This document shows, one piece after another, positions 2,464-24,498 of a DNA stretch of 64,000 nt. Every line of letters starts with the position of its first letter. The first letter of the stretch is position 1. The notes under the pieces were generated by a model. The model was given only the letters and a program-made list of their open reading frames with translations, was not told the origin of the DNA and ran no database searches. The position numbers were made by a program, and so were the translations under genes. This stretch comes from Clavaria fumosa (taxonomy: Eukaryota; Basidiomycota; Agaricomycetes; Agaricales; Clavariaceae), in NCBI GenBank assembly GCA_951802425.1, contig OX637799.1, positions 1,240,001 through 1,304,000 of the forward strand, read 5' to 3'.

Positions 2464-4952
2464 CTAGACGACTCTCACTCCCTCCATGTCCCCTGCGCTG
2501 GCGACATACATATTCGTCTTGCCGCTCAATTCTGCCTGGACTTTGAGCGCACGGGGCGCATCCATGCGCTCCATCGTGACCTCCACCAACTGCATCACCT
2601 CTGCCCTCGCGAACTGTGGACTCGCCAGCAATTTATTGAGCTCTGCCTTGGTGGACACTTTGTATGATTTCGACTCGGTCTCGTGTAGGTCACCGAGAAC
2701 ATTTAATAAGGACGTCCATTTCCTAATTTACGTAGGAGTCAGTGAATATCGAGGGAGGTTGGAGATGCCAAACCAATCGCAGATGTCATTGTATTTCCTG
2801 TCCTTGCCATGCAAGTACCTCTCAATTGTATATCCCGAGTTATTAATAAGGAAGATGATAGGCCGCAACTTGCAGCGCAACATGGTGCTCAATTCTTGGA
2901 CTGTCAGTTGTCTGTAACAAGCAATGAGTCACAGTCGCATGCTTTGTAAAGTAGCACCCACAAGCTCCCATCTCCAATAAAGAGAATTGTTCTGCCCAAT
3001 CCGATGTCCCTTGCAGCCAATGCGGCTCCGAGCGTACTTCCTGCCACAAGCTCAGTTGCACTGTATGCTATGAAACGAAGTCAACTTACCGACAGTCCAT
3101 CCGATACTTCCCCAAAGAATCTGACTAACGAACCTGGCACCCTCGGGAAGCGGGATGTCTAGGATTCCAAAGCTTGATGTTCCTGTCTCGGCAACAACGA
3201 CGTCCTTCTCTCTGAAGAATTCCCCTACGCGAGGCCAGAACCAGGTATGAGTAATGATCTTAGAATCTTCCTCTGGAACTACAGCTCGATACACCGGCAC
3301 ATGTAATTTCTCCGCACTGTCACGGAATTCACGAAGACGGGCGGTCAATTTTGGCAGCAAATGCTTCATTCCAATTCCTTCAAAGCGTGCATATCGAACA
3401 CGGATATGATCGGAGTGCAACTGGGATATAATGAGTACGGCTCCAAATATGACTTGGAGAGCTAACCTCAACAGTAGAGGTGGTAGGAATGCTATAAGTG
3501 AAATTGCCAGTATTGAAATCGCTCTTGAGTGCGCCAATAGACAAGATGAGTTTTGCGGACTCGACCTTATTTTTGATATCTGGATGGCTAATAGACCCAA
3601 CGTAAATCTGAACGAAAAAAGGTCACTAATCAAGCAACCAACATGGCACAATACGTGAGAACTTACGCCTCCGTATCTTTCGTACCGTTCGCTGACCGCC
3701 GTTTTGCCCATGGGCGAAGAGTACACAGGATATCTCGTATTTATTAACAAATCACCGAGCTCTTTTATCACATCGTGTCGGATTGCGCACGCATCCACAA
3801 GGATGACAATGTCGTGCCCAGCTGCCTTGACTAGCTTGATAATTTCGTCTAGGACAAATGCTTCTACTTCAAGGTCGTTTGCAGGTGCCGCGCGGGAAAG
3901 TGGCAGAGAAAGGCGCGTAGGGGGAATTTTGGCGTGAGCCATGTCAGTCGGGAGGGTGAGATAAACGGGGCGAGCCTCGAAAGTGACGTATCGTGAGGGA
4001 TAAGAAACTGCGGAAGCAAACATGCCGTACTGAAGTAACACACGCAGTCAAGACACGGTCAATCTCTGCAGCAGCAGTTTCTTCGTTCATAATCGTCGCT
4101 TGGGCAATCGTGAACTGTTCCGCGGCCTTTTTGTATGCTTCGTACCTGCAAAGCCTTTCAACGAGAGTTGTGACTTGAGGTTGTAGATATTACCTGCCGT
4201 CTCCAAGGGTGTGGTGAAGCATAGGCTTGACTTTCTGCTGTGTAGTAGAAGGAACTCCGACGATATGTAAGACCGGGACCATCTCCGAGAAGGCTGATGA
4301 TGTCATGATCAGACCTGAACGACATATCGTACTGTATTGACGTACCGCCAGCAATGCCGTTCATGGCACTCAACTCGCCAACCCCGAAACTACCAGTGCA
4401 ATGTCAACACGTCACTGTCACTGGCACGCTGCATAGAGCTCACGTTGTAACTACAACACCGATACAGTGTGCCTTGATGCGCGCATAGCCATCAGCAGCA
4501 TATGCAGCATTCAATTCGTTGCTGTGTGGTTAAGTTAAACACACGAACGATTCTTGATGAGCAGAATGGCGTACCAACAGCCAATCCACTCAATGGTCGG
4601 GTGATCTTCGACCAGGTCCTGACATTGCGGCTTAGCTCTAGTTGCAGGTTGTACGCGCGAGACACACAAGAAAGCCTATGTAGACAATTGGCCGTGGATG
4701 AGACAGACTTCGAGATGATCTTCCAGCACTTACCGAGATTGAAATCACCGGGGACACCAAACATGGCCTGCGTATCTGAATTATCTTCCCGGACGCATCA
4801 CAGCGGAAATGGGTGCTCACTTTGACACCGATCTGTTGCAGCCTAGTCAAGAGGTACTGCCCTATGGTAATTTTATTGGCGGTTTCGCCGTGTTTAAGAG
4901 TTTGCATTTCAGCACGAAGGCGGGATACTTCATCTTGCAATGCTGCTGTCAT
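2464..4952 (-). CDS. Pyruvate decarboxylase (thiamine diphosphate enzyme)
   Basis: Converts pyruvate to acetaldehyde and CO2 in fermentation; cytosolic. Read on the minus strand through about eight introns, the exons give in order: [24 protein letters not shown]; a block with [14 protein letters not shown] (cofactor Glu region); [22 protein letters not shown] (the His-His pair of the family); the central domain with SSPMGK; then [12 protein letters not shown] and, after an intron, LTVQEL...[10 protein letters not shown], which together form the GDG-N thiamine diphosphate motif. The C-terminus is at 2464. The start at 4952 (ATG before [15 protein letters not shown]) is the first good ATG; a longer in-frame extension upstream starts only with TTG. 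The N-terminal ~20 residues before the conserved fold look like a short helical extension. No stop or missing catalytic block is apparent, so the gene looks functional. It is divergent from eS19, with 185 bp between the start codons. Confidence 0.9.
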
Positions 4953-8850: not shown

Positions 8851-9020
8851 ACCAGCTTAATACAGTGTAAAAAATTATAATAAATGGTGCTATTTTTTTT
8901 TAAATTTGTAGGCCTCAAAAATGGTTTCACATATTGTAAAAAATTTTGAATTTATTTATAAAAGATTATTTCACATATCCAAGGCAAGAAAAGTTGGTTG
9001 GAAAATACAAAATTTATAGG

Positions 9021-9187
9021 GTTGAATTTGTCTCAGCAATAAATGCAGAAGAAAATTTTGAATAATTTTGAATAATTCTCCTTTGAAAATACTTTGAGCC
9101 AGCACCAGTCAAAGTATTTTCAAAGGAGAATTATTCAAAATTATTCAAAATTTTCTTCTGCATTTGTTGCTGAGACAAATTCAAATC
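9021..9187. repeat. Hairpin with ~77-bp arms (MITE-like)
   Basis: The left arm (9021-9097) and right arm (9109-9187) are reverse complements with about one mismatch; the loop is 11 nt (9098-9108). The stem is AT-rich and includes CTCCTTTGAAAATACTTTGA. Surrounding AT-rich DNA (8870-9245) may be part of the same element, but I could not fix its ends. Confidence 0.75.
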
Positions 9188-9244
9188 ATCATATTTAAAA
9201 TTTTATTATATAATAATACTACCCAAAAAATTGGATGAAGAAAT

Positions 9245-10923
9245 TAAAATGTGGGTGCTGATTGATCATGTGATCGGAGGCTGCTGCGACCTGGCGCTCT
9301 AACGGGTACCCAATTAGGGTTGGTGCTGATGGTGGCACTGCCCATCAGCGCCCACATTGCCATATTTGGCTGTACTCCTCCAAAGTGATAGTCACGGGCT
9401 TCGCAACCTTTGTGAGTGGTCCTGTGCTCTCCCTTCGTCACCCCATGACTTGGGAAGTGGACTAAGCCTTATTAAGGACAGACTGAGGCCAGATGGAGTA
9501 TAAGAGGTCTATTATTAGTATCTAGTGTTGCCACAGTTCGGTTAATTTCGGTTAACCGAACTCAAACCGATCTCAAATAAAATCTGTAAAATCGCAGAAA
9601 AATTAGAGTAGGTTTAAAATATGTGTAGAAATCTCCAGAAATATTTCCATAATTTTACAGAATTTATTGAAGTTTTAAAAGCATCGGTTTGAGTTCGGTT
9701 AACCGAAATTAACCAAACCGTGGCAACACTATTAGTATCAATTCATTATCCTGAGATAGGATAAGTGGGATTGAGAGCAGTACAAACAGACTAAGGTCGC
9801 GATCGAGCGCCGGAAAGTCGCGAAAACGATCGTGGGCAATTGTGGGGCATTCCCCCACATTCTCCAGGTGTTGGATCACCAACATTGAGTCATTATGACT
9901 CATTATGAATATTTTTAGATTATGTCAAACCTTCGAAGTGAAATAACTTGTTAAGAAAACAAGTTAAAATTATGAATCCTTCTGAGGATATAACGTCCCA
10001 TTTATCCTCAATTATGAATATAAAGACTACCTTTTATATTCAGTAGTTATTGAGCTATTCATTATTTACTGTAAATAGAAAGTAGTCGAATTTCAGTATA
10101 AATATGCGGTGGAATCTTGCGTTCCACATTGCATTTTATAACCCACAAGTCGAGTGACGCTCTCCAAATGAGACCTAAGCCATAGCTGGGCTAGCTCAGA
10201 AGCTATAACCTATTTAGTATAGTTAAGGATAAAAATCTGATTATACTAAATAAAGTAATTGCTGGTTGAGGACTTAGTCTGACTAAGCGATTATGGTATC
10301 ATTAGACAGCCGGACTTCGCGTCTATCGGAAGGCAAAAGCTCCCCTTGACCAGTCGGTTATTCATCGAGTTATGAATATTCTGATTAAGTGTACAATGTC
10401 CTGTACTGTACATAAGATCAGTCTATTCATACAAAGGTATGTTTAGTGAATAACTAGAGAACCAGTGAGAATCAAGGGATGGTTTATAGAGCTGGAGTGC
10501 TCTAAATAACCAGGGAAATTTCATGGTTCCTTCACCCTAATTCTCTGGCCTTTGGTTAACTAGTTATTCAATGTTTATTCTTAAACCTCACATATTGAAT
10601 TGGCCTGAGTAGTTAATACTTATAGACTGGTCAGCTATTGAGGCATGGTGCTGACCTGTGGGTCACCACTAGGTCAAGGCAAACCCATGAGGGTCAATAG
10701 CTAAAGCTATAGGTTATGGCTACCAGGTTACTAACTAATAATATCTTGCCCAAAGCAATGCCCTGCTGAATGTCTTGGTTTCAGTACATTTGGCAGGAAG
10801 GTGTGGAATTGACTAGCCTACTAGTCCTGTAGGCTAGACTGTAAAGGGAATTGTGGAACTGTCTGAGTCATCCTGACTCTCAGTGACTCATTTCCATTTG
10901 CATCCAGTACCAGATCCATAACA
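9245..10923 (+). mobile_element. Truncated copy of a long non-coding LTR-like element
   Basis: Homologous along its length to the right part of 18749-20739: shared blocks include a paired stop-like hairpin around GAGTCATTATGACTCA, a segment near GGACTTAGTCTG, TGTACTGTACAT, and the right end CCAGTACCAGATCCATAACA at 10923. The left end lacks the TGTTAGGATG start seen in the other copy, so the 5' ~450 bp are missing or replaced. No coding capacity is visible. A 209-bp hAT-type element sits inside. Confidence 0.65.
9523..9731. mobile_element. hAT-type non-autonomous element (209 bp)
   Basis: Terminal inverted repeats of about 45 bp start TAGTGTTGCCAC and contain TTCGGTTAACCGAA. The element is flanked by an 8-bp duplication, TTAGTATC, at 9515-9522 and 9732-9739. 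An 8-bp duplication and TAGTGTTG-type ends are known hAT hallmarks. No coding capacity. It lies within the truncated long LTR-like copy. Confidence 0.85.
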
Positions 10924-11938: not shown

Positions 11939-12666
11939 ATGCCGATGGCCAACCACATTGTGGTGATCCTTGACATACAACACTGCATTGCCCAGGCTGG
12001 CAAGCAGATTAGCGATCTTCACGTCATGCAGGCGATGATCCTCTCCCTGCTGAAGACCCCGTCATGGGAAATTATCAAGATACAGCTGTTCGATGTTGAG
12101 ACACCCACCCCTGAGATTGTCAGCACCAAACTCCAGGCTGAGGTGAACAGATGAGTTCGAGAGAAGTCCGGAGGCCAGATGGCACTCCAGGCGACTGCGA
12201 AGACCAAGAAGGGCGGCAAGGGCAAGGGCAAGGGCCCGCAACCCGGCGACAAGTGCCGATACTGTCACGAAAAGGGGCATTGGGCTAGCAATTGCCCAAA
12301 GCTTGAAGGGAAGGAAAAGAAGTTGAGTGGTGCACTGTCAGGGTCCTCAACTAACACCGGTATGGCCAACATGGCCATCGACAGTCTCCAGGACCTGGGT
12401 GCGAAGGCCATGGGGCGGGCTTACCTTGCCACCAGCCCACGTGCTACTACCGGGATCATCCTTGATTGCAGGGTGACAGCCCACATGTTTTGCAACTGCA
12501 AATTGTTTTGCTCCTACACACCCTCATCAGGACAATCTATATCTGTAGGGGATGCCTGCGACATACTGGTTGAAAGACACAGCAGCGTATGCCTCAAGGC
12601 ATGACTGCCAGGGGGATACCCAGAGGTAACACTCCACAGCATCATGCATGTGCCAAACCTGGCTAT
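11939..12666 (+). pseudogene. Copia-A: truncated Ty1/copia gag to protease
   Basis: A degraded gag on the plus strand: the helical N-terminal region (LLKTPSWEIIKIQLFD), a Lys/Gly-rich linker, the zinc knuckle CRYCHEKGHWASNC (CX2CX4HX4C), then a decayed protease with ILDCRVTAHMF where DSGAT is expected. In-frame stops at about 12153 and 12602 break it. The sequence continues as LPGGYPEVTLHSIMHVPNLA and stops abruptly at 12666 where Gypsy-1 begins; no continuation was found to the right of Gypsy-1. Confidence 0.8.
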
Positions 12667-14143
12667 TGTTAGGGCCTGTCCCATCTTGTAAGTAATGCTG
12701 ACGATTGACTTGTTGGTGACCAATCTTGGAAACTCGCTAGTACCAATCAACTGTTGAGCACAGTCAAGAATGCTCAGTCCCAGAGGGTTGCGAAGATGTC
12801 TGAGAAGATGTAAGAGTGAGGAAAGACAAGTATAGAGGAGGAAGACGTCGCTGGGAGGTCGTGAAATTGGTAGACAAAGTGTAGAAAGAGAAAAAGACGA
12901 ATTGAGAGAGAGGAGATGTCGTCGAGAAGGTTGCGGGGTCAACCGACTAAACGTAAGAAAGGAGTTTGACAATGTAGAAGAAACAGATAACACTGAGAAG
13001 GTCACGAAGTTGACCAACAAAGTGTAAGAAGGAAAAAGATGAGGTGAAGGAAAGAGACAGTGTTGGAAGGGTCGCAAGTGGTTGCGATGGTGTTGAGAGG
13101 TGTGTCAGTGAAGGCGATGACTTTGCCAACTGATGGGTGAACCTGTGGGGTTCGAAGAGATCAGTACCAAGATGAAGGGAAGAGAATACTTAGGCGCATG
13201 AGTTTGTACAAGCACGGAGGACAAGATTAGAAAGAAGCAGAGTGATCTTGGTGTTGTCAAGGTCACCAAGTGAGACAAGACCTATCAATCGCGATGGTTC
13301 CAAACTCAAAGGGCGTCGTGCCTCAAGCTTAAACCAAAATGCATCAATATCAAGTCTAGAGTGCCATAAGTACATGCAAGACTTTATATATGTATGTACA
13401 GAGAGTATAATAGAAAAGAAAAAGTACAAAGGTTGCCAGGTGATGAGACTATAGTAGTGTGGGGTAGGTTTAGTTATAAGGTGACTAGGCATGTGTTCTA
13501 CTAAGGTCACAAGGGGTTAGGAATGCATAAGTAAGGTCGCGAAGATGACCTGTCATGAGTTGCGACCTAGTTAAATAAGTATATATTTGCTGTAACTATG
13601 GGGGGATTCTCAGATCATAAGTAATGTAGTTATAGGCGACTGAGGAGAAGAAGGGACACATATTTGAAGTAATAATACAGCTGACCATTGGTGGCACATT
13701 TGAGTGTTAAGGTCGTGAGGTCATAAGAGCAGTCACATGGGTGACGCAGGTGACTTTGGGCAGGAAGTCATGTGGGTAATGCATGTAATGTGGGTAATGG
13801 CCATAACACTGTTATTGTATTGGTGCTGGTAGTGGTAGCGCCAGGGGTGCCATGTGGCAAGTCATGTTCTGGTGGGAGTAGACATGTAACAGTGTGTCAT
13901 GCGTAGGATTGGTGGGTCCGGGCGGAGTATGTGCATGCAGTGAGATAGTAGGAGGTGTCATGAGTACAGCTTGGTGGTCACAAGTGTCATGTGGGCGTGG
14001 GGGAGGTTGCAGGGGCTTCTGGAAGGGGAGAGCGGGCTTCGGAAGCATGTAGAGGGGGTTGCAAGGTAGTAGAGGGTCGTCGGGAGGGTCGTAGGTGTTG
14101 GTAAGGTCGGTTTGGGTATGGGAAAAATGAATGGGTCCTGACA
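12667..14143 (-). repeat. Gypsy-1 3' LTR (1477 bp)
   Basis: Starts TGTTAGGGCC and ends GGGTCCTGACA on the plus strand, giving TG...CA ends in both readings. The polypurine tract lies directly next to it at 14144-14156. It contains many loosely repeated GGTCGCGAAG-like motifs and a TATA box in the minus direction. Confidence 0.8.
13346..13390 (-). promoter_or_regulatory. Gypsy-1 LTR TATA box and inferred transcript start
   Basis: On the minus strand TATATAAA lies at 13390-13383. About 33 nt downstream is AGACTTGATATT (13357-13346), exactly complementary to the 12 nt next to the 5' LTR (see primer-binding site). The spacing suits a start site at or next to 13357. The start is inferred, not measured. 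Confidence 0.65.
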
Positions 14144-14259
14144 TTACCCCCCCTTCAAGCCTCGAGCCCTGCGAGAGTGGAGGTCATGTGATGATTAGTC
14201 AGCACGATGTTTGTTGATCAAGTCATGACACCCAAAATTTTTCTCTAAGTCCAACCACC

Positions 14260-16215
14260 ATGGTCTCTACTTTTGTCAAACAACACGAGCTCGAAACCGA
14301 AACTGAGGTCATGCACGAAATGCGCATTTCGAGGAAACAGAACCTGACCTCAATTGGGGGATTCTGGAAGATGCATTGGCCCGTCAGGCGAAGGAACGGG
14401 CGTGATGTGTGTGTGTACGAGGTGAAGCCGCAGGTCCCAGTGGTACGGGAGATGACGTCACGGGCTCCAGCATGACAGTGGGTAAAATTGCGGGCTCCAG
14501 TGAGGTGGGGGTCAACACTGTGGGTGTAGCAGACCCGTCGCCTGTGGGATTCTTAAAAGCCTGGAAGAAAATCGGGTCAGCAGGGGAAATTAGGGAGTGG
14601 AATGAGATGGAGTGGGGAGGTGCATAATAAAGTTCCTCACTCCAATTCATTTTCTCTGATCATTGGGGTTACAGGATTGCGGAAACTGCGCCGCAAAGGG
14701 CCGGCAGTGCAGGTGCGGCACTGCTGGTAAGTGTCGTCCTTGCGCAGAGGAGGCTGAGGAGCACGGAAAGTGCTCCTGGGTTCAAGACTTTCGTTGATGG
14801 CACGTCAAGAACGAATTCGAGTGGAATGATGCGCAAGTTGACGAGGCGTTGAAGCACGCTGATGGACCGGAAATGGTGGGCACAGCGACACCCAAGGTTG
14901 CGAGCTGAGTGGGGGGAAAACTCCCCATCCTACTGATTCCGGAGACCCCAATGCGAGTAGGGCATGAAAAACGAGTGAGGGCAAGGTCATGGTCGCCGAC
15001 GCCTGGTCCATCGAGAAGGAGGTGAGTCGTGAAGCTGTCATCATCGAGGAAGGTGGTGGAGGAGGAAAAGATCATGGGGATGAAAGTCCCAAGAGGCGAC
15101 CTGGAGAGGGAGCTCGTGATGCTCCGACAGCAAGTTGCAGAGCCCACACAGAAGATAGTGTGGGTAGAGAAGTCGAACAGGGAGGTGGAGCTGGAGGCAG
15201 AGTTGACAACGGTAAGGGATGAGTTGGAGGAATTTGAGAAGAACTTTGAAATCCTCCAGAGGCAATTTTTTAGTAAGTAATTGCTTTTTATGTTATCGCA
15301 TTGCTGATTAAATTTTTTGCACTACTCAGGTCAAGAGGCGAAATTGAAGGAGGCGCGCTGAGACTTGGAAGTAGTGAGGGGCAGACAGACGCGAAAGGGT
15401 GGAAAAGGTAAGTTTTAGTATTTTCCTAGTATTCCATGATGTTACTAAAGTTGTGAGTCTGTAGGAAAAGGCAGAGAGGTTGAGGAAGTGCGGGTGGACT
15501 CACCAAAGGCATCCGCATCCTGGGGGATGGACACGAAGGTCACAGAGTTGACAGTGCAAAAGGAGGAGGTGGAGGGAGATTTCAAGGCTCTGCATGGGGA
15601 GTGGCAGGGTGAGCAATTGTCTCATTATCTCTCTAGTTGGTGAATTGATGTTTCTGTCTTGTCTAGACTAAGAGGTGAAGTTGAGGGAGGTACAACAAGA
15701 CTTGAAAAAGTTGCGGGAAGGGGAAAAAGGTAAGTTTTGTAGTCGCGAGTACAAAATGACTAATTTGTATTCGCAGAGTTGTTGGCAGTGGTAGAGGAGA
15801 CGTGTAAGGAGTTCAAGGAGTTGAGGGGTGTAATAGCAGCGATGAGGAGAGAGGAACAAGGTAAGTGGTTTGATAACTCTTCGATGTATCGTTACTGATG
15901 ATTCTTGTAGGTCTTTGCAGCATGCTGGATGCTGCCTGTGCTCATGGGCGGTGTGTTCTCAAAACGGTATACTTTGGCTTCGACGACCTGTGGAGGAAAA
16001 TCGAAAAATCACAGGAAAAATCGAAGTTGTACAGTTGGGTGACGGTGGAGCAATACCATTTGCGAAACAAGATCGCGAGGTTCCCGCGAGTGGATGGGGA
16101 AGGATGATTGATTGAGGAGGAGGAGGGAAGGCAGGCAGAGGAGAGGAGTCCCAGTGTGGAGGAGGTAGTCAAGGTGGAAGGGTCACGAAAGGGGAAGGAA
16201 AAAGCTCGCAACTAG
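14260..16215 (+). pseudogene. Antisense, intron-rich gene inside Gypsy-1 (Cys cluster plus coiled coil)
   Basis: Lies on the strand opposite to Gypsy-1, between its integrase end and 3' LTR. A plausible start is the ATG at 14260 (context ACCACCATGG). Exon 14675-15272 begins with a Cys-rich motif, DCGNCAAKGRQCRCG, then CRPC and CSW, and continues into a Glu/Lys/Arg-rich helix. Short exons follow at about 15330-15407, 15465-15608, 15667-15729, 15777-15860 and from 15911, each bounded by good signals (GTAAGT donors; CTCAG, TGTAG, TCTAG, CGCAG acceptors). The last exon encodes a helical region with YFGFDDLWRKIEKSQ. The C-X2-C and CSW pattern resembles a Cys cluster I know from Agaricomycete proteins of unknown role. 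One frameshift near 14400 and several TGA/TAG codons show decay. Confidence 0.55.
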
Positions 16216-16690
16216 TAAATAGAATTTTTTGTTGTGTTTTTATCATGTGTATAAATTGCTGTGAAGTCCCAAGTGAGAAAGAGAAGAAAAATGAAAAGGA
16301 TGCAAGGAAAATTATTGAGTTGTGCGAGTTGCGTGAGGTTTTTCCAGGTGGGTTGTGTGGAAGTCTTCAAGGAGTTCCTTCGAGCTAGGCTTGGTCACGA
16401 GTGCACTCGCGGATCACCTGGATCCGTGTGTGCGGGTAACTCATGGTGCATGGGGCCTTACTTGGATCCGTGGGAAACTCATCCCCATGAGTACTCATGA
16501 CAAGTACTCACAAGTACTCACAAGTAATTGATGATTCACCAGCCAAAATCTTGTCAAGACCATTGACTCAGATCCTCAAAGATCCTCAAAAAGCCCACAG
16601 TAGGCAAACTCAGACTCACGAGTTTCCTGACTCATGGGTTTTCCCACGAGTTTACCTGTGGAGATCTGTGAGTGACCGGGACTCATGACC
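16216..16690. other. Gap between the antisense gene and the Gypsy-1 pol end
   Basis: No gene seen. It contains short repeats of the kind AGTACTCACA (16490-16530) and several ACTCATG/CTCATGA copies between 16430 and 16690. Confidence 0.4.
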
Positions 16691-18747
16691 AAGCCTACTT
16701 CGAGCTGGAAAGTGATTCTATAGGTTCCTAGGTGTTGTCCTCAGGTCCGTAACCTTCCCAATGTACGAGGTAAAGCACTTTCCTACCCCTCCTTTGAGAA
16801 TCTAGTATATCAGCAACTTCATAGTGTTGTTTGCTGTTGATCTTGATAGGGGGCAGGGGTTGCTGTTGTCGCTGGGGGAAGGCGTCATCATAGACCTTCT
16901 TGAGTAATGAGACATGGAAAATGTCGTGAATTCCCTGCATAGTTTTTGGTAACTGGAGATGATATGCATGAGTCAAAACTTTTGCAAGTATGGGGAAAGG
17001 TCTGGCTCATTTCAAGTCCAGTTTCTTCATCAGTCTCTTTGTCTTCACATTCCGCAAGTCTAACCACACCTTCATTCCTTCTTTCCAGTCCAGTGTAATC
17101 TCTCTCTTCTTGTCCATGAAGTGCAAGGAGGCCTCATTTGCGACCTTGAGTTGATCTTGTAAGTGCTGGTGGAGTGTCTTGAGATTGGTTGTGACCATGT
17201 GGGCTTCGTGCACAGGTATCCCTTCGAGGGAAATTGTGAGTCTTGGGTGGTATCCCTTGTTTGCAAAGAATGGGGAGACACCAGTCGTGCTGTGGGGAGT
17301 ATTGTTGTATACGAACTTGGTGAGCGGGAGTTGGTAGGTCCAGTCGTCCTGCTGGTAGTTTGTATAGATTTGAATGTATTGCTCTAAAATCTGATTAACT
17401 CACTCCATTTGTCCGTCGGTCTCAGGATGGTAGGCTGTGGAAAGTTTGGAAGTAATATCCAAAGCCTGACATAACGAAGACCAAAACTTAGAAATGAATA
17501 ATCTTCCTCTATCTGACACTATGTCCGCAGGTAACCCATGCTTCAAGAAGACGTGGGTGATGAAATGCTGGGCTAGTTCTTTTGTGGTATTGGTAGTGTT
17601 GGTGGAAATGAAGATCACTTGCTTCGTAAGTCAGCAGACAACAACGAGGATCGAGTCAAAGGTCGCAGAGAGAGGGAGGGCTTCGATATGGTCCATTGAG
17701 ATTGAAGACCAAGGTCGCTCGCCTATGGGCAAGGGTTTGAGGAGTCCATAAGGTTTGTGTCGGATGGGCTTTGCCCTTGTGCAGGTGTGACAACCACAGA
17801 CATAGACGGTTACATCCTTTTGGAGTCCTGGCCAGAAAAACAACCTGTTTATTAGCTGGGTTGTCTTTCTTATACCTGGATGTCCTCATAGTTTGTGGTT
17901 GTGGTTGGAGCATAGGATATTGAATTGGAGGGAGTCATGGTCAGGGACATATATTTTTCCATTACGAAGTAGTAGTGAGCTGTCGGGCAAGAGCGAGAAT
18001 GCCTTGTTGCAACCTTGTGAAGCACCCTGTGATTTCTTTGTGAAGTATGAGTCATGAGGGGCATGTCGAATTCGCGAAATCAGGGCTTCTTCGTTGAGGA
18101 TGATGGCTGCTTGAAGGAGTTCTGGCGGTATCGCGACTTTATTGTTTTGGGCATTAGTCATGGGTTGGTCAGACTTCTTTGGGTAGACATTGGGTCATCG
18201 TGTGAGGGCATCTGGCTTTGTGCCTAGCTTTCCTGCTTGATAATGAATAATATAATCAAAACTGGAAAGGTACTCTGCCCAGCAGGCTTGTCGGCGGCTG
18301 AGTTGCTTTGTGGTGGTAAAATATCGTAGGTTATTGTGGTCCAAAAAGACCTGAATTTGGTATTGCGTGCCTTCAAGGTATGCTCTCCATTGCTTGAATG
18401 CATCATGTATTGTGAGGAGCTCTTTGTCATAAATGTTGTAGTTGAGCTCTGTGGCGATCATTGTATGTGCATGGAAAGCGATGGGACGTAGCTTGTTAGT
18501 CACAGGATTGGTTTGAGAGAGAATGGCCACTATCACATAGTCAGAAGCATCGCATTCAAGGGTAATGGGGTGGTCAGGATCGTAGTGCTGGAGGACGGGA
18601 GCTTCGGTAAAGGCCTGCTTGAGTATATCGAAGATTTCTTGGCATCGCGGGCTCCATTTCCATGGTGTGTCCTTGCAGAGGAGTCGCATAAGTGGAATAA
18701 CAATGCCAGAATAGTTGTCTATGAATCTTCAATAAAAATTAGCAAAG
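16690..18747 (-). pseudogene. Gypsy-1 pol, RNase H to integrase and chromodomain
   Basis: Minus-strand fragments give the RT/RNase H joint (ANFY then stop, RFIDNYSG), RNase H (LECDASDYVIVAILSQ, DKELLTIHDAFKQWR), the integrase zinc region (CGCHTCTRAKPIRHKPYG), the integrase core with ISMDHIEALP and VSDRGRLFISKFW and AYHPETDGQME (D, D, E all visible), and a chromodomain EVADILDSQRRGRKVLYLVH. The Trp after GYGPEDNT is a TAG stop, and the Arg expected after ANFY is TGA. Both fit G:C to A:T changes. Frames are broken in several places, so no protein is made. Confidence 0.85.
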
Positions 18748-18748
18748 C

Positions 18749-20739
18749 TGTTAGGATGTTGTATGCTTACCTTCTCATGTCTAGGCTTCCTCCTTGTCCG
18801 GGGCCCTCCAGTTATGCGTCTCATTAGCCTAATATGCCTACTGCCCTATTCACACATGCCTATGTACCAATAGTTATGGAAACCACTTTTGATTTGGTGT
18901 TTAAAGTAAAAAGGACTGGGAATCTACACTCAGAGGAAGATGAGGCTCTACAGCGAGAACTAAGAATCGCACAGAGATGCGGTTGGTATCGTTCAATTTC
19001 CATTCACTGATAACCCTTATTCCAAGAGTTGCAAAAGGAAGCAACCATTTTTCATTCCTTAAACTAAGAAACATCACTCTGGGCCTCATCTGAGTAGACA
19101 TCAAAATAACACCAAGGAAGATAGGAAATATGAAATTCTGAACAGACAGAAATGTCGGCAGGGTGTGTAAGGTCATATGTGCGAGTTTACGAGAGGTGCA
19201 GAGCTTTTGCGGCTAGGCTACAAGGTCGCGAACTCACTGGTGCGAGTTTGGCACCATTCTGGTGTTGTGGGGCCAAGTGATTGTGATCGGGGCCTCGATT
19301 GGGTGATCGGAACCAAGAGAGGTGATGTCATTCCCACGGTGACCAAGTTGGGGCGTGGGAAGCGGCTGGCACTGATGCCATCAGCGCCCACCTTGCCTAA
19401 TTAGGAGTACTCCTCCCAGGTGAAGGATGCACACTTCGCGACCTTTCCATTGGATGTGCAGTCCTCCCCTTGTCCTATCTTGGCCTGGAAACTTGGCTAA
19501 GCTCAACTAGGACTAGAATGGGGTCTAGTAAAGCATGAGTCATGTTCTATTAATAATTCTGTGCTATTGCAGAATGAGACAGATAAGACTAAATGAGGTA
19601 AAAATGAGATAAGGTCGCGATTGGGGTCTAGAAGTGTCCAGGGAGCCGCGGAAATGATCGGGAGAGACTGCGGGGTGTTTCCCCGCATTCTCCTGGCGTT
19701 AGATCGCCGATATTGAGTCAGTATGACTCAATATGATTATTTTTAGATCAGCTGGAATGTTCGAGATGTAATATCTCAATGAGGAGATAAGATAAAATTA
19801 TGATCTTACCTGATATGTAAGGCCACTGAATTCTCCTTAATTTAGAGTCCTTAAACGGTATGTTAGGACTACTATTTAAGGAGCTATGCTGTATTCTTCC
19901 AAATGTAGTAGGTATACAAATTTGAGTATAAATAGCTGGCGGAACTTTGCGTTCCAGGCATCATTACGTACCCACTCATCGATTGAACCATCCTGCAAAA
20001 GGACTAAGCCTGAGTCTGGCTCCCCACGGAGCTAAGGACATATTTAGTAAAACTAAGGACAGGGTCTAGTTAAACTAAATGTAGTATCTGCTGGCTAAGG
20101 ACTTAGTCTGGTCAAGTGATCTGGGTACCAAAAGGTACCCAGACTTCGGATGAGCCGCCCTGTGCCGGCTCCCCTCGGCGCGGTAAGTAATGAGAGAGCT
20201 ATGAATATTTTAGTATGATGTACAAGGTACTGTACTGTACATAGTACTACTGTGTTCATCAGAGTAAGTAGTGAATAGCTAGCCAATTAGGCAGTGGTTT
20301 ATAGAGGTAGAATGGTCTACAAGACCAGGTGAATCTCATGAACTCTCCAGCTTGTTTCTCCTGTGTCTGGTTAGCTACTTATTCACTGATCTATTTTGAC
20401 CTATCTACATTGATTTGGCTTAAGTGTGCAATACCTATGGAGTGGTCAGTCATTGAGCCATAGTATCAACCTGTGGAGTAATACCAGGTTGAGGCAGACT
20501 ATGGAGGTCAATGGCTAAGCCCATGGGATGTTGTGACTTAGGTTACTAACTAATAATAATATCTGCCCAAAGCAATGCCTTGCTAGCAGTGTTGGTTTCA
20601 ATACTGTTAGCCAGAAGGTATGGAACTGGAGGATCTACTAGTCCTGTAGACCAACTGCATAAGGAATTGAGGACCTGTCTGAGTCATCCTGACTCTCAGT
20701 GACTCATTTCTGACTGCACCCAGTACCAGATCCATAACA
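18749..20739. mobile_element. 1991-bp LTR-like insertion in Gypsy-1 pol
   Basis: Starts TGTTAGGATG and ends CCATAACA, flanked by the 5-bp duplication AAAGC (18744-18748 and 20740-20744). It breaks the RT gene exactly between LGF and ANFY, and removing it restores gypsy pol. No coding capacity, zinc knuckle or pol motif is visible, so it is a solo LTR of a long-LTR element or a non-autonomous element. Its right ~1.5 kb matches 9245-10923. Confidence 0.85.
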
Positions 20740-22163
20740 AAAGCCTAAAAAGCTCTGAAGGTCGCAGATCTTCGTGGGTACGGGCCAACTTAGGATGGCC
20801 TGTATCTTCGAAGGGTCCATGGCAATTCCATCAGGGGACACTATAACTCTGAGGTATTCAACTGTCATTGTGTGAAAATCACACTTCTCGGGTCGCGCAT
20901 GTAGGTCTGCCTTTTGTAGACATCGTAGGACCTCTCGGACGTGGTTGTGATGCTGTTCAAGGTTGTCCAAGTAGATTAGGATGTCGTCGAGGTAGACTAC
21001 TACATTGACGTTGACCAGATTGTGAAAGATATCATTCATAAGGTGCTGAAAGGTCATGGGTGTGTTCATGAGTCCAAACAGCATGACAAGATATTCAAAC
21101 GTGCCATAGCGAGTGCGGAACAGAGTTTTCCACTCATCTCCTTCAGCTATCCTCATGTTATTATATCCAACACGAAGGTCGATCTTCGAGTAGATTTTGG
21201 CCAAGCACAATTGGTCGATGAGGGTCTCGATTTGGGGAATAGGGTAATGATTTTTTCGGGTAATCTTGTTGAGACCTCGGTAGTCGACACAGAGGCGAAG
21301 GCCTCCATCTTTCTTCTTCGCGAAGAGTACCGGTGCACCTGTGGGGGATTTTGACGGCCGAATGAAGCCTTTATCCAACATGTCATCCAAATAATCTTTC
21401 AACGTCTTTAACTCCACTTCTGACATGTTGTATAGCTTCCTGTGAGGAGGTGTTTCACCTTCCTCAAGTTCAATTCGGTGGTCGTAGTCACAGTGCAGAG
21501 GTAGTTCCTGGGCTAGATCTTTGGAAAAGACATCCAGGAAGTTGTGGTACTTGTGTGGGACTGTTTCTTCGGGTTTCAGAGGGGGTTGAGTGGTCGCGGA
21601 ACTTGCAAGTATGGATTCGTCATTGTAGGGGTTGCTCGCGGGTTGGAAGTATAGGAGACCTATAAATTCTCCTTGTTGTTCCAAGCGGCAAAGCGTGGTA
21701 GCCTTGACCAATTGAACTCGCAGGGGTTTAGAGGGTTTTGGTGCCAAGTTCGCAAGGTCAGGAGGAGGTTTACTCAGGGGTTTCATGTCCAGAAGGGTGA
21801 GAGGGATAGTCGCGGAGTGGGCTGTCTGTCTGAAACTAAGAGTGAGGTTGGTCCAATTGATCTGGGGTTCCAAGTTTGCAACCAATCGAGTCCTAGAACC
21901 ACAGGGGTGAGAGGATGGGTTTTAGTGATGAGGAACTTAATGGATTGGATAGTATTGTTGGGAAACTTTGCATTAGCGAGGACATAGTGGGTAATGTTGG
22001 AGCTGGAGGAACTTCTGTTGAAATATTGAAGCGGTAAAGGTTGCAGGAGTGGTATTAAGAGGTTCGGACAGGAGTTCATGAGTGTAGAGTCGATAAAATT
22101 TATGGATGTGCCAGAATCCACAGGAGTATTTAGAGGAATCAAGCTGAAATCTGGTATTTGCAT
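20740..22163 (-). pseudogene. Gypsy-1 protease and reverse transcriptase
   Basis: The protease has PVDSGTSINFID (active-site DSG). The RT follows with KKKDGGLRLCVDYRGLNKIT, YSKIDLRVGYNNMRI, FEYLVMLFGLMNTPMTFQ, and VVVYLDDILIYL; the YLDD catalytic box is intact. The frame runs to LQSFLGF at the insertion point. Protease and RT lie in different, overlapping frames, which here looks like decay. Residue changes such as DLRVGYNNM for DLRGAYNLI and MNTPMTFQ for TNAPATFQ also suggest drift. Confidence 0.88.
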
Positions 22164-22435
22164 TTTTATGAGGAAGGATTGGGAGGACTGGGAAGCAATA
22201 GGAGTATTAGAAAAGTTGCGAGGAGACTGAGAGGAGGAGGAATTAGTTGTGGCCTGTGCGAGTATGGGGGTTGGATCATTGCGACTCAGAGTTCCCCTGG
22301 AAGCTCCTGAGTCACTTCCTTGTTTAACTCTTCATGTGGGTCATCCACATCCTCTTCTATTTCTTCCTCAACTTTGTACTCTTCCTGTAGCTCTTCCTCT
22401 CCTTCCTCTAGCGTGAAGACGGCTTGTCCGGCTAA

Positions 22436-24252
22436 TCATTGATTGGGGCATGCTGTGCTGTAATGTCCAGACTTCCCACATCTCATGCAAAGATTTCCCT
22501 GATGATGACGTTCTTGTTCCTCATCACTGAGGGGGACATAGGGCGGATTCAGATTTGGATTCGGCTGGCAAGGTGGATTAGCAGGTTGCGGGGTTCCCTG
22601 TGGCTGGTCGTGGCATTGTAGGGTTGTTGCCAGCAGCGGGATAAGGTCGCGACGTCGCTTGGTAGTTGCGATTTCTGCCTTGTTGAACAAGAGGGTGATT
22701 TCTGCCTTGTTGAGCAGGGGGACAGGGAGCAGGAGGGTTAGTGCAGAATTGAGATTGGTGGGTCTCACTCTCATATTCCCAGTGCCTCTGGTCAATTTGC
22801 ATTGCCAAATCTCGAAGTTCCTGATATGTAGTGGGTTGCGGAATGACTTTCATGGCCTCTTTGATGTGCATGGACATCGAATGGTAGAGCTCTGACTGAA
22901 TTCCAGTTGGATTTGAAACAGATGATGTGGTTGGAGAATCGTTCATTCTTGCCCATCTGTAACATACGAAGGTTCTGGTCCGCCTCAATCTGGGTGTTCA
23001 CTACTCCGAACATTCCTCCAAACTCGCGAATAAACCCTTCCCAGGAGTGTAGGGCTGGGTGGTTGGGATTGAATTGAAGGAGGGAGGTGTAGTGACTCTG
23101 TGCGGTGTCCATGAGGTAAGAGGCCACAAAGATAACCTTCTTGTGGTCACCCTGGAAGGTTACGGGCTTCACGAAGAACATCATCAAGCATTCCGTGTTG
23201 AAAGGTTTCCACTTGCGTTGATTGCAACCATTGAATGGCTTGGGGCACCTGGTATTGAGCTTGGATTCTTGAGCGAAGGCATCTCGGGTTGATGGTCCTT
23301 CGAAGGGAGGGGCCTGGTAATAGTAGTGGTGGTGGTGAGTACCAGGGGCCTCGTCTCGAAGTGCGGCGGCGACATGCAGAGGCATAGGGGGGACTGGAGG
23401 GACTTGTGGGGCTTCAGCCTGAGACAGGGGATGAGATACTGGTCACGTCTCTGTCAGAGGTACTGGTCGTGCTTCTGGTTGTGGAATGCAGAAGGGCTTG
23501 ACCGGAATCTTGAGGCAGGGGGCAGGTTGAAGCATTACTTTGGTCCCTATAGGGTCACGAGGGAGCGCCCTGCTTGGAGTAGTGGCTGGCTGCATCCATG
23601 TAGGCCAGCTACTGCAAGGGGCGGTGTACCTAGGAATCCTAGAGACAATGGCAGGTCACTCATCGGGCGCGGCGGGATTTGCGAAGTTCTGTAGAGATTG
23701 TGCCGTGACCTGAAAAAGCAGGCTCATATCTCGAGGTCCTCTAGTGGGTTGAACCTGTCTCGGAGGTCGCGAGGGAGTATCCAGGTCAGGGGGAGTCGGA
23801 ACTCCACAATCAGTGGTTCCTGGGTACTGACACTGACTTTTGTACAACCGATTCTGAGGGTTCGCATGGAATCCATCTGTCAATCATACCAATGCCTCGT
23901 AGAGATTTGTTGTCTCAATGAGGTACACTAGTTCTTCATCGAGAGTTCTGGTTTTGTATTGGTGGCGAGTATTGTTGAGAATTTGGTAAGTATGGTGGCG
24001 AGGGTGGTCGAAGCGCGGGTAACCGAGCTGCTCCACGAGGGACTCAGCTTCTTCATGCAGGGATGAGGCATGGCTAGGTGCGATTTGGGTGGGTTCTTCA
24101 GGCTGTGATTGAACGACAGACGCAGGTCACTCTTGAACAGTGGTAGGCAGCTCGCGAGTAGTCTCCAAGATCATTGGAGTGATCGCGCAGCTACCTGTGC
24201 ATGTCTGGAAGTGATGAGTGGTTGGTTGGGGAGGAGTGTGACTGGAAGACAT
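22436..24252 (-). pseudogene. Gypsy-1 gag
   Basis: The ATG at 24252 lies about 54 nt after the LTR edge, as expected for gag. The frame runs through a Pro/Gln-rich region and a conserved capsid part (VTFQGDHKKVIFVASYLMD, HSWEGFIREFGGMFG) to a zinc knuckle CMRCGKSGHYSTACPN near 22440. TGA codons at about 24130, 23885, 23660 and 23445 and a frameshift near 22800-22950 inactivate it. Confidence 0.8.
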
Positions 24253-24293
24253 AATAGGGTGTTATCCGGGTGTTGAGTGGTGGGGCAAGGGGG

Positions 24294-24305
24294 AGACTTG
24301 ATATT
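24294..24305 (-). other. Gypsy-1 primer-binding site, self-complementary type
   Basis: One nucleotide inside the 5' LTR edge, the minus strand reads AATATCAAGTCT, a perfect 12-nt complement of AGACTTGATATT in the element's own LTR (13357-13346). It does not start with the TGG expected for a tRNA primer. This matches Tf1-type self-priming. Confidence 0.7.
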
Positions 24306-24306
24306 A

Positions 24307-24358
24307 TGTTAGGGCCTGTCCCATCTCGTAAGTAATGCCGATGATCAACTTGTTGGTG
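24307..24358 (-). repeat. Gypsy-1 5' LTR remnant
   Basis: The first ~52 bp match the start of the 3' LTR (TGTTAGGGCCTGTCCCATCT and on to TTGTTGGTGAC), then similarity stops, so this LTR is truncated or interrupted by later DNA. Confidence 0.8.
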
Positions 24359-24498
24359 ACTGTCATGAAAGCATCGCCTGTACTATCAGGCCAGCAAATT
24401 TCAATCCTTTAACTTAAGAAACACCATGCAAATCAGGCGAACAAGGGGCTAAACCCCGGCTATATATTTTATTGCAAGATAAGTACAATACTTATCTA

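What the first reader, a model, noticed from the sequence alone, without database searches (positions are those of the whole stretch)
14260..16215. Antisense intron-rich gene between pol and the 3' LTR of Gypsy-1
About 2 kb on the opposite strand look like a spliced gene: five or more short introns with good signals, a Cys cluster (CGNC...CRC...CRPC...CSW) and small exons encoding repeated coiled-coil units. Retroelement genomic RNA in the sense direction would not splice these antisense introns, so the gene could persist through retrotransposition. It may be a captured host gene or an accessory gene of the family. I know of no described antisense gene of this type in Tf1-like elements.
Basis: partly seen in the sequence, partly recalled or inferred. 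Interest (0 to 1): 0.75.

Follow-up and report, generated by a model that had tools for sequence, protein, structure and literature searches.

The report
Spliced antisense gene in a retrotransposon
A family of retrotransposons carries, on its opposite strand, a multi-exon gene under strong selection for a cysteine-cluster and coiled-coil protein, which may help the element regulate itself from inside the nucleus.

Summary
Window 14260-16215 (+) is a seven-exon antisense gene between the 3' LTR and pol of a degenerate Ty3/gypsy element; all six introns are GT..AG with consistent phases. This copy is a pseudogene, but the gene is a regular part of the family: 80 of 92 listed integrase C-termini (60% identity or more) have an exon of it, on the opposite strand in every listed pair, and 83 of 100 listed LTR/PPT junctions have its Cys-cluster exon at a near-fixed distance. 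dN/dS in the antisense frame is 0.11-0.28; the Cys exon (0.11) matches integrase (0.13). The LTR-to-ATG leader is the best conserved stretch of the 1.4-kb alignment. One LTR-less copy is fully open. Seven outside proteins are consistent with the same intron 1 or 2 edges. The protein has six Cys with Zn2Cys6 spacing, a basic stretch and a heptad coiled coil, but no Pfam Zn_clus match. Antisense accessory genes are known in plant Retand/Grande, fungal Boty (brtn) and HTLV-1 (HBZ); this multi-intron Cys-cluster version is a new variant. Transcription and function are untested.

The parts
12667..14143 (-). 3' LTR of the element (element runs on the - strand); on the + strand starts TGTTAGGGCC and ends CCTGACA
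   Evidence: LTR ends confirmed on a young copy
14144..14259 (+). leader between LTR and ATG, holding the PPT (CCCCCCC on the + strand) and the probable antisense promoter/5' UTR (inferred)
   Evidence: 0.88-0.98 mean pairwise identity in five 25-nt bins over 28 junction-bearing sequences; 0.67-0.84 in the 100 nt before, 0.69, 0.42, 0.68 in the three bins after
14260..14619 (+). exon 1 (this copy carries frame changes and a stop)
14675..15272 (+). exon 2: six-Cys cluster (C-x2-C-x6-C-x7-C-x2-C-x6-C in most copies; last loop 3 residues longer here), basic stretch, start of charged helical region; three TGA in this copy
15330..15407 (+). exon 3, 78 nt, phase 1-1; one TGA here
15465..15608 (+). 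exon 4, 144 nt, phase 1-1
15667..15729 (+). exon 5, 63 nt (21 aa, three heptads), phase 1-1; one TAA here
15777..15860 (+). exon 6, 84 nt (28 aa, four heptads), phase 1-1
15911..16215 (+). exon 7, C-terminal domain and TAG stop; one premature stop
16699..18748 (-). end of pol (integrase C-terminus, RNase H), antisense to the gene
   Evidence: Pfam RT_RNaseH on 18195-18728; family-wide DNA match; integrase label from position and reader, no Pfam hit
20741..24306 (-). rest of pol and gag (by eye) of the same element, beyond an inserted solo LTR
24307..24360 (-). remnant of the 5' LTR (91% to the 3' LTR over 54 nt)

Best explanation
The segment is an antisense accessory gene of a Ty3/gypsy LTR-retrotransposon family. 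SHOWN by sequence: fixed position between pol and the 3' LTR, opposite strand in every listed pair; six to eight exons; frame, splice sites and leader conserved; purifying selection like that on pol. INFERRED: a promoter in the conserved leader (perhaps with the 3' LTR) drives a separate antisense mRNA, which the spliceosome processes. The sense genomic RNA carries only the complement of the introns, which would not be spliced, so introns are copied unharmed at each round. The product, about 575-606 aa, enters the nucleus through its basic stretch, pairs through its coiled coil and uses its six-Cys cluster, probably zinc-bound, to bind nucleic acid, regulating transcription or silencing of its own element (an HBZ-like arrangement). 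My confidence in the gene itself is about 0.93; in a nuclear DNA-binding regulator about 0.5. The figure below covers the whole statement.
For: Linkage: 68 of 68 exon-2 copies with a listed integrase, and 79 of 79 last-exon/integrase pairs, are in opposite orientation; 80 of 92 listed integrase rows at 60% identity or more (one copy is split in two rows) have a gene exon; 83 of 100 listed LTR/PPT junctions have the Cys exon on the same strand at 427-810 nt. Selection: dN/dS 0.109 (Cys exon, 400 of 435 pairs), 0.124 (exon 1 end, 310 of 435), 0.182 (end of exon 2, 401 of 465), 0.278 (last exon, 136 of 231); four of the five control frames 0.80-2.05, the fifth (r1, sharing the wobble position) 0.19-0.42, weaker than the true frame each time; benchmarks 0.129 (integrase) and 0.126 (RNase H). 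Splicing: five GT..AG introns at the same places in six young copies; intron 1 kept with length changes not divisible by three. Leader conservation. Fully open eight-exon copy L037. Outside proteins P0001-P0007 read into or through what look like introns 1 and 2 at the same places. Basic stretch KRTR[AV]RSRSPTPGPS[TS]SKRRV in L037, P0001 and P0002. Heptads over exons 3-7, 0 of 2000 shuffles.
Against: No RNA data: transcription and splicing are inferred. No Pfam match to Zn_clus (to E 10; to E 1), and hhalign against four yeast Zn2Cys6 domains gives probability 3% (E 0.015) although all six Cys align. The AlphaFold model of P0001 is poor (pLDDT 52). None of the six young in-element copies modelled is wholly open. 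The gene tracks pol only loosely (Mantel r 0.30 against 0.98 for integrase-RNase H), so modules seem to be exchanged. 12 of 92 integrase rows and 17 of 100 junctions lack a listed exon; one exon-2 hit lies on the opposite strand to a nearby junction.
Confidence: 0.6

Rival explanations
1. The product is a structural or enzymatic helper of retrotransposition (nucleocapsid-like chaperone, assembly or nuclear-import factor) rather than a regulator of transcription or silencing.
For: As constrained as pol; Cys cluster, coiled coil and basic stretch would also suit an RNA-binding assembly factor. L024 lacks the stretch from RT to integrase but keeps the gene next to the gag-side match.
Against: A promoter-like leader of its own and introns are an odd way to make a particle component; the C-x2-C-x6-C-x7-C-x2-C-x6-C spacing is that of DNA-binding clusters (recalled), not CCHC; by eye the element's Gag has its own CCHC knuckle (reading).
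Confidence: 0.25
2. A captured host gene carried as a passenger, with no role for the element.
For: Multi-exon host-like structure; origin unknown; gene distances are only loosely coupled to pol. 28 of 124 exon-2 rows have neither a listed integrase nor a listed junction; most were not examined, so a host copy among them is not excluded.
Against: Present beside most listed integrase places and diverged to near saturation (median dS 1.18), yet dN/dS near 0.11. A passenger would decay.
Confidence: 0.08
3. The selected product is antisense RNA (lncRNA or dsRNA), not protein.
For: Spliced TE-antisense lncRNAs without coding potential are known in Blumeria (PMC10648671, passages read).
Against: Codon-specific constraint: 57% of differences in the Cys exon fall on third positions, dN/dS 0.11; symmetrical phase-1 exons that keep frame when exon number varies.
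Confidence: 0.04
4. The LTR-less copies (L037 and three hits of equal score) are a domesticated host gene derived from the element.
For: L037 is fully open over eight exons and lacks LTR and the rest of pol; hits of equal score lie on C1, C2 and C4. L037 is about 66 kb, the C2 hit about 153 kb and the C4 hit about 10 kb from a contig end; the length of C1 was not seen.
Confidence: 0.2

Closest known systems
Antisense aORFs of plant Retand, Grande, RIRE2, PvRetro13
   Same: between pol and 3' LTR, antisense, present in most copies of a family; Grande product nuclear, Retand TRP28 predicted DNA-binding (PMC11963269 and PMC7264820, passages read)
   Different: Retand proteins carry TRP28 (PF04195), which was not hit here; 'intron' has 0 occurrences in the main text of both papers; plant hosts
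brtn of Boty in Botrytis cinerea
   Different: known to me only through citing passages (PMC7264820, PMC8365987); its sequence and exon structure were not seen, so homology is untested
HTLV-1 HBZ
   Same: antisense gene with spliced mRNA encoding a nuclear regulator (start of the PMC6237760 abstract in a listing; passages of PMC11963269; details of dimerisation recalled)
   Different: bZIP rather than Cys cluster; retrovirus; no homology claimed
Fungal Zn2Cys6 (Gal4-type) transcription factors
   Same: six-Cys spacing with coiled coil further on (family features recalled)
   Different: no Pfam Zn_clus match, weak hhalign
VANC anti-silencing proteins of VANDAL transposons (recalled, no call)
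   Same: element-encoded factor reading short motifs scattered over its own element
   Different: DNA transposon, unrelated protein; the analogy rests only on the TCGCGA observation

Membership tests
Antisense accessory gene (aORF-3R) of LTR retrotransposons | lies between pol and the 3' LTR | tested here: met
Antisense accessory gene (aORF-3R) of LTR retrotransposons | antisense to gag-pol in most copies of the family | tested here: met
   80 of 92 listed integrase rows have an exon; 79 of 79 last-exon pairs opposite
Antisense accessory gene (aORF-3R) of LTR retrotransposons | conserved coding sequence | tested here: met
Antisense accessory gene (aORF-3R) of LTR retrotransposons | transcribed from its own promoter | not testable with these tools
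   only leader conservation
Zn2Cys6 transcription factors | C-x2-C-x6-C-x5-12-C-x2-C-x6-8-C (recalled) | tested here: met
   C-x2-C-x6-C-x7-C-x2-C-x6-C in most rows and all nine rows; the window copy has a last loop of 9, and a few decayed rows have lost a Cys
Zn2Cys6 transcription factors | match to Pfam Zn_clus (PF00172) | tested here: not met
   no hit up to E 10 for P0001 and L037 exon 2; none at E 1
Zn2Cys6 transcription factors | profile similarity to canonical domains | tested here: inconclusive
Retand TRP28 antisense proteins | TRP28 domain PF04195 | tested here: not met
   no hit
Boty brtn | sequence homology to BRTN | not tested
   no BRTN sequence held
Ty3/gypsy element | RT-type RNase H of the RT_RNaseH families in pol | tested here: met
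   no RT tree built

The most novel reading that the evidence does not exclude
The antisense gene encodes a sequence-specific nuclear factor that reads a short palindromic code, TCGCGA (two TCG/CGA half-sites), scattered through the element's LTR repeats, introns and coding parts, and thereby activates the element or shields it from silencing. This would be a retrotransposon counterpart of HBZ- or VANC-type self-regulation, with its gene kept intron-rich because it lies on the strand that is never spliced as genome.
Probability: 0.15. Interest if true: 0.82.

Novelty: new variant of a known kind. Interest (0 to 1): 0.62.

Why it matters
Plant and retroviral cases show that antisense genes next to the 3' LTR recur, but what most of them do is unknown. 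Here is a family with roughly a hundred listed copies in one genome, strong codon-level selection, a conserved leader and introns that serve as a built-in tag for antisense transcription: any read spliced there must come from the antisense strand. That makes the question of what antisense accessory genes do directly testable. It also suggests a way for spliceosomal introns to survive reverse transcription over long times.

Tried and rejected
Sense-strand coding: minus-strand ORFs overlap the gene in the window (14223-14552, 14782-15321), but the frame sharing the wobble position (r1) has higher dN/dS than the antisense frame in all four segments; rejected as a shadow.

'Copies with shared lesions still transposed': L029, L031 and L034 share an exon-1 frameshift and a TGA, which at first suggested dispensability. 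L029 and L031 have the same outer LTR flank and the three lie 69-70 kb apart on C7 (the flank of L034 was not checked), so duplication is the simpler reading; the argument was dropped.

Gene as LTR partner: the Cys exon does not track the proximal LTR better than it tracks integrase (r 0.28 and 0.30; 0.23 and 0.35 on the common 17); no support for co-adaptation.

TCGCGA as the specific target of this protein: enriched in the element, but it is also in other LTR-like stretches of the window, and AAGGTCGCGA occurs 1143 times in the genome against 270 for the reversed control, by eye often in places without a listed gene copy; kept only as a lead.

Structure: a single-sequence AlphaFold model of P0001 was too poor for fold search, so none was run. 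PDB sequence searches gave nothing meaningful. Rfam on 12600-16300: no match. Automatic gene finding on L030 and L033 gave spurious exons, so for those the projected model stands; one search failed to find the start codon and was replaced.

Biases to bear in mind: one search takes rows found by tblastn, which favours copies with a kept frame, and includes the C7 duplicates; pairs with saturated or very low dS or too few shared codons were dropped, and dS is near saturation. Genome searches score only the best candidates and lists were cut. For one search, 124 listed exon-2 rows were used (about two dozen listed rows matching mostly a later part of exon 2, and the unlisted rest of 192, were left out), as were 122 of 151 integrase matches (the rest listed were below 48% identity). 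The protein searches scored only about 8000 candidates each.

Full report
WHAT IS THERE. Window 14260-16215 (+) lies between the 3' LTR (12667-14143 on the + strand) and the end of pol of a Ty3/gypsy element that runs on the minus strand. The junction TGACA|TTACCCCCCC is the LTR end plus the PPT. The gene has seven exons (14260-14619, 14675-15272, 15330-15407, 15465-15608, 15667-15729, 15777-15860, 15911-16215) and six introns of 47-58 nt, all GT..AG; intron 1 is phase 0, the rest phase 1. This copy is dead: seven in-frame stops and two frame changes in exon 1. The element is also broken by an insert that looks like a solo LTR (about 18749-20740) and a small insert (16386-16697); in relatives the flanking parts of both join directly in the match lists.

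FAMILY. DNA search found 86 matching places, protein search with exon 2 found 192, with the last exon 109, with the integrase C-terminus 151. Using 124 exon-2 rows, 109 last-exon rows and 122 integrase rows: 68 exon-2 copies have an integrase 1.0-3.5 kb downstream, all 68 in opposite orientation. Of 92 integrase rows with 60% identity or more (one copy is in two pieces), 68 have the Cys exon, 79 the last exon, 80 either, 12 neither; last-exon/integrase pairs were 79 opposite and 0 same. The LTR/PPT junction with up to 2 mismatches occurs 142 times (reversed control 0); of the 100 listed, 83 have the Cys exon on the same strand 427-810 nt on, 17 do not, and one has an exon-2 hit on the other strand within 2.5 kb. 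56 of the 124 exon-2 rows have no listed integrase; 28 of these still have a listed junction upstream, 28 have neither. L024 lacks everything matching from the pol end to the gag side (window 16310-22227) but keeps the gene.

YOUNG COPIES. L030-L034 are 88-98% identical to L029. In all six, five introns of 49-56 nt with GT..AG sit at the same places. L030, L032 and L033 keep one frame from ATG to stop, broken by one, two and two in-frame stops at different places; those in exon 2 are TGA, consistent with CGA-to-TGA decay after insertion. L029, L031 and L034 share a frameshift; L029 and L031 also share the outer flank, so they are duplicates, and L034 probably is too. For L029 the LTRs bound the element (483-1969 in L029; 487-1970 in L039), 94.6% identical; the outer five bases TCGTG and TCGCG differ by one.

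OPEN COPY. L037, about 66 kb from the end of C11, contains the gene from just past the LTR end (28 nt of the leader side missing) to just beyond the pol end, without LTR or the rest of pol. Its gene is fully open: exons 1339-1737, 1791-2364, 2430-2573, 2627-2689, 2737-2820, 2875-2937, 2988-3050, 3105-3442. The script left one 54-nt in-frame intron (2821-2874, GTAAGT..CAG) unspliced and reported 593 aa; spliced it is 575 aa. Three other places, on C1, C2 and C4, give hits of identical score; their sequences could not be fetched.

SELECTION. Frames f1, f2, r0 and r2 gave 0.80-2.05. Frame r1, whose third positions coincide, gave 0.221, 0.191, 0.347 and 0.422, always weaker. Benchmarks from the same loci: integrase 0.129 (169 of 210 pairs), RNase H 0.126 (93 of 120). 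Median dS for the Cys exon is 1.18, near saturation and about twice that of integrase (0.60), so the gene pool seems older than the pol pool; distances correlate only loosely (Mantel r 0.30 on 18 loci, 26 of 2000 permutations as high; integrase-RNase H 0.98 on 14 loci), pointing to exchange of the 3' module, perhaps by template switching.

SPLICE SITES AND LEADER. For intron 1, 28 of 34 rows start GT and 32 of 34 end AG at the exactly extrapolated base. The six non-GT rows are two extra rows of one L025 locus, three register shifts by eye (L024, L031, window) and one real change (L020); the two non-AG rows are truncated rows of the same L025 locus. Lengths vary by single bases, and a CTRAY-like branch site is visible by eye. 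From the LTR's last five bases to the ATG, mean pairwise identity in 28 sequences is 0.98, 0.90, 0.88, 0.89 and 0.90 in five 25-nt bins, against 0.67-0.84 in the 100 nt before and 0.69, 0.42 and 0.68 after. The PPT explains only the first bin; the rest is a good candidate for an antisense promoter and 5' UTR. This is inference.

PROTEIN. Exon 2 opens with C-x2-C-x6-C-x7-C-x2-C-x6-C in most copies, followed by SWV..FRRWRVK. Then comes a basic stretch, KRTR[AV]RSRSPTPGPS[TS]SKRRV in L037, P0001 and P0002, and charged helical segments. Exons 3-7 of L037 show heptads (0 of 2000 shuffles), with several exons of exactly 3 or 4 heptads and phase-1 borders, so exon number can change without loss of frame: two such short exons in L029 and four in L037. 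The last exon carries a conserved domain in at least two diverged types (down to 33% identity). Pfam gives no match above its cut-off; hhalign to four yeast Zn2Cys6 domains aligns the six Cys at E 0.015, probability 3%. So it has the spacing of Zn2Cys6 proteins but is not shown to belong to them.

OUTSIDE THIS GENOME. Seven proteins, P0001-P0007, were found (about 8000 candidates scored per search). P0001 covers exons 1-2 and appears to read through an in-frame intron 1 and into intron 2; P0004-P0007 look like exon 1 running into intron 1; P0002 and P0003 cover parts of exon 2 and run on past its end. No DNA was seen for them. They are uncurated predictions from unnamed contigs; the host range stays unknown.

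HOW IT PROBABLY WORKS. Promoter next to the 3' LTR, antisense transcript, splicing, nuclear coiled-coil protein with a metal-binding Cys cluster acting on nucleic acid, most likely regulating its own element. The first parts rest on sequence evidence, the last step on resemblance. A lead for the target: TCGCGA ranks first of 64 palindromic hexamers in six of seven element stretches and second in the seventh (18 against 2.4 expected in L029; 12 against 0.4 in one LTR), and ranks 25th, 46th and 10th in three non-element stretches. L037 has six in its 376 intron bases, L029 only one in 262. An array of 71-nt repeats (2.7 copies) in one LTR has GGTCGCGA in its unit. But the motif is also in other LTR-like sequences.

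WHAT IS KNOWN. [quoted passage not shown] PMC11963269, abstract and passages), for Grande, RIRE2, PvRetro13 and fungal Boty (PMC7264820, passages and section 5), and brtn is cited in PMC8365987 (passages). Spliced non-coding antisense RNAs from fungal TEs are described in PMC10648671 (passages). Ten library searches listed no paper whose title or shown abstract start describes a multi-intron or Cys-cluster antisense gene in such an element; only the best-ranked papers were shown, the library lacks most subscription papers, and the original Boty paper was not read. Verdict: a real gene, new variant of a known kind.

Noticed in passing
window 16386-16697: A 312-bp insert with inverted ends (TAGGCTTGGTCA / TGACCAAGCCTA) and an 8-bp duplication CTTCGAGC, hAT-MITE-like, just beyond the antisense gene; relatives match on both sides without it.
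   Followed up: partly
window 18749-20740: Insert in pol that looks like a solo LTR of another family; a part is related (74%) to 9816-9975.
   Followed up: no
L029, L030, L032, L033, L035, L037, L039: TCGCGA strongly enriched throughout the element, including an LTR repeat array; AAGGTCGCGA occurs 1143 times in the genome against 270 for the reversed pattern. No explanation settled.
   Followed up: partly
L037:4217-4927 (-): Neighbouring ORF with another six-Cys pattern (CSRCAARNEVCVARRDNRACDRCKANRQSC) and a charged tail; no Pfam hit above cut-off.
   Followed up: no
L024: Element copy lacking the part from the pol end to the gag side but keeping the antisense gene between LTR pieces, possibly non-autonomous.
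   Followed up: no
L034, L029, L031 (C7 2.14, 2.21, 2.28 Mb): Element copies 69-70 kb apart; L029 and L031 share the same outer flank, suggesting tandem segmental duplication.
   Followed up: partly
window 9002-9204 and 9523-9731: Two inverted-repeat structures (96-nt arms at 90%; 49-nt arms at 96%), MITE-like.
   Followed up: no
window 12155-12604: Fragment with a zinc knuckle and sub-threshold Pol_BBD similarity, perhaps copia-type gag-pol, next to the 3' LTR.
   Followed up: no
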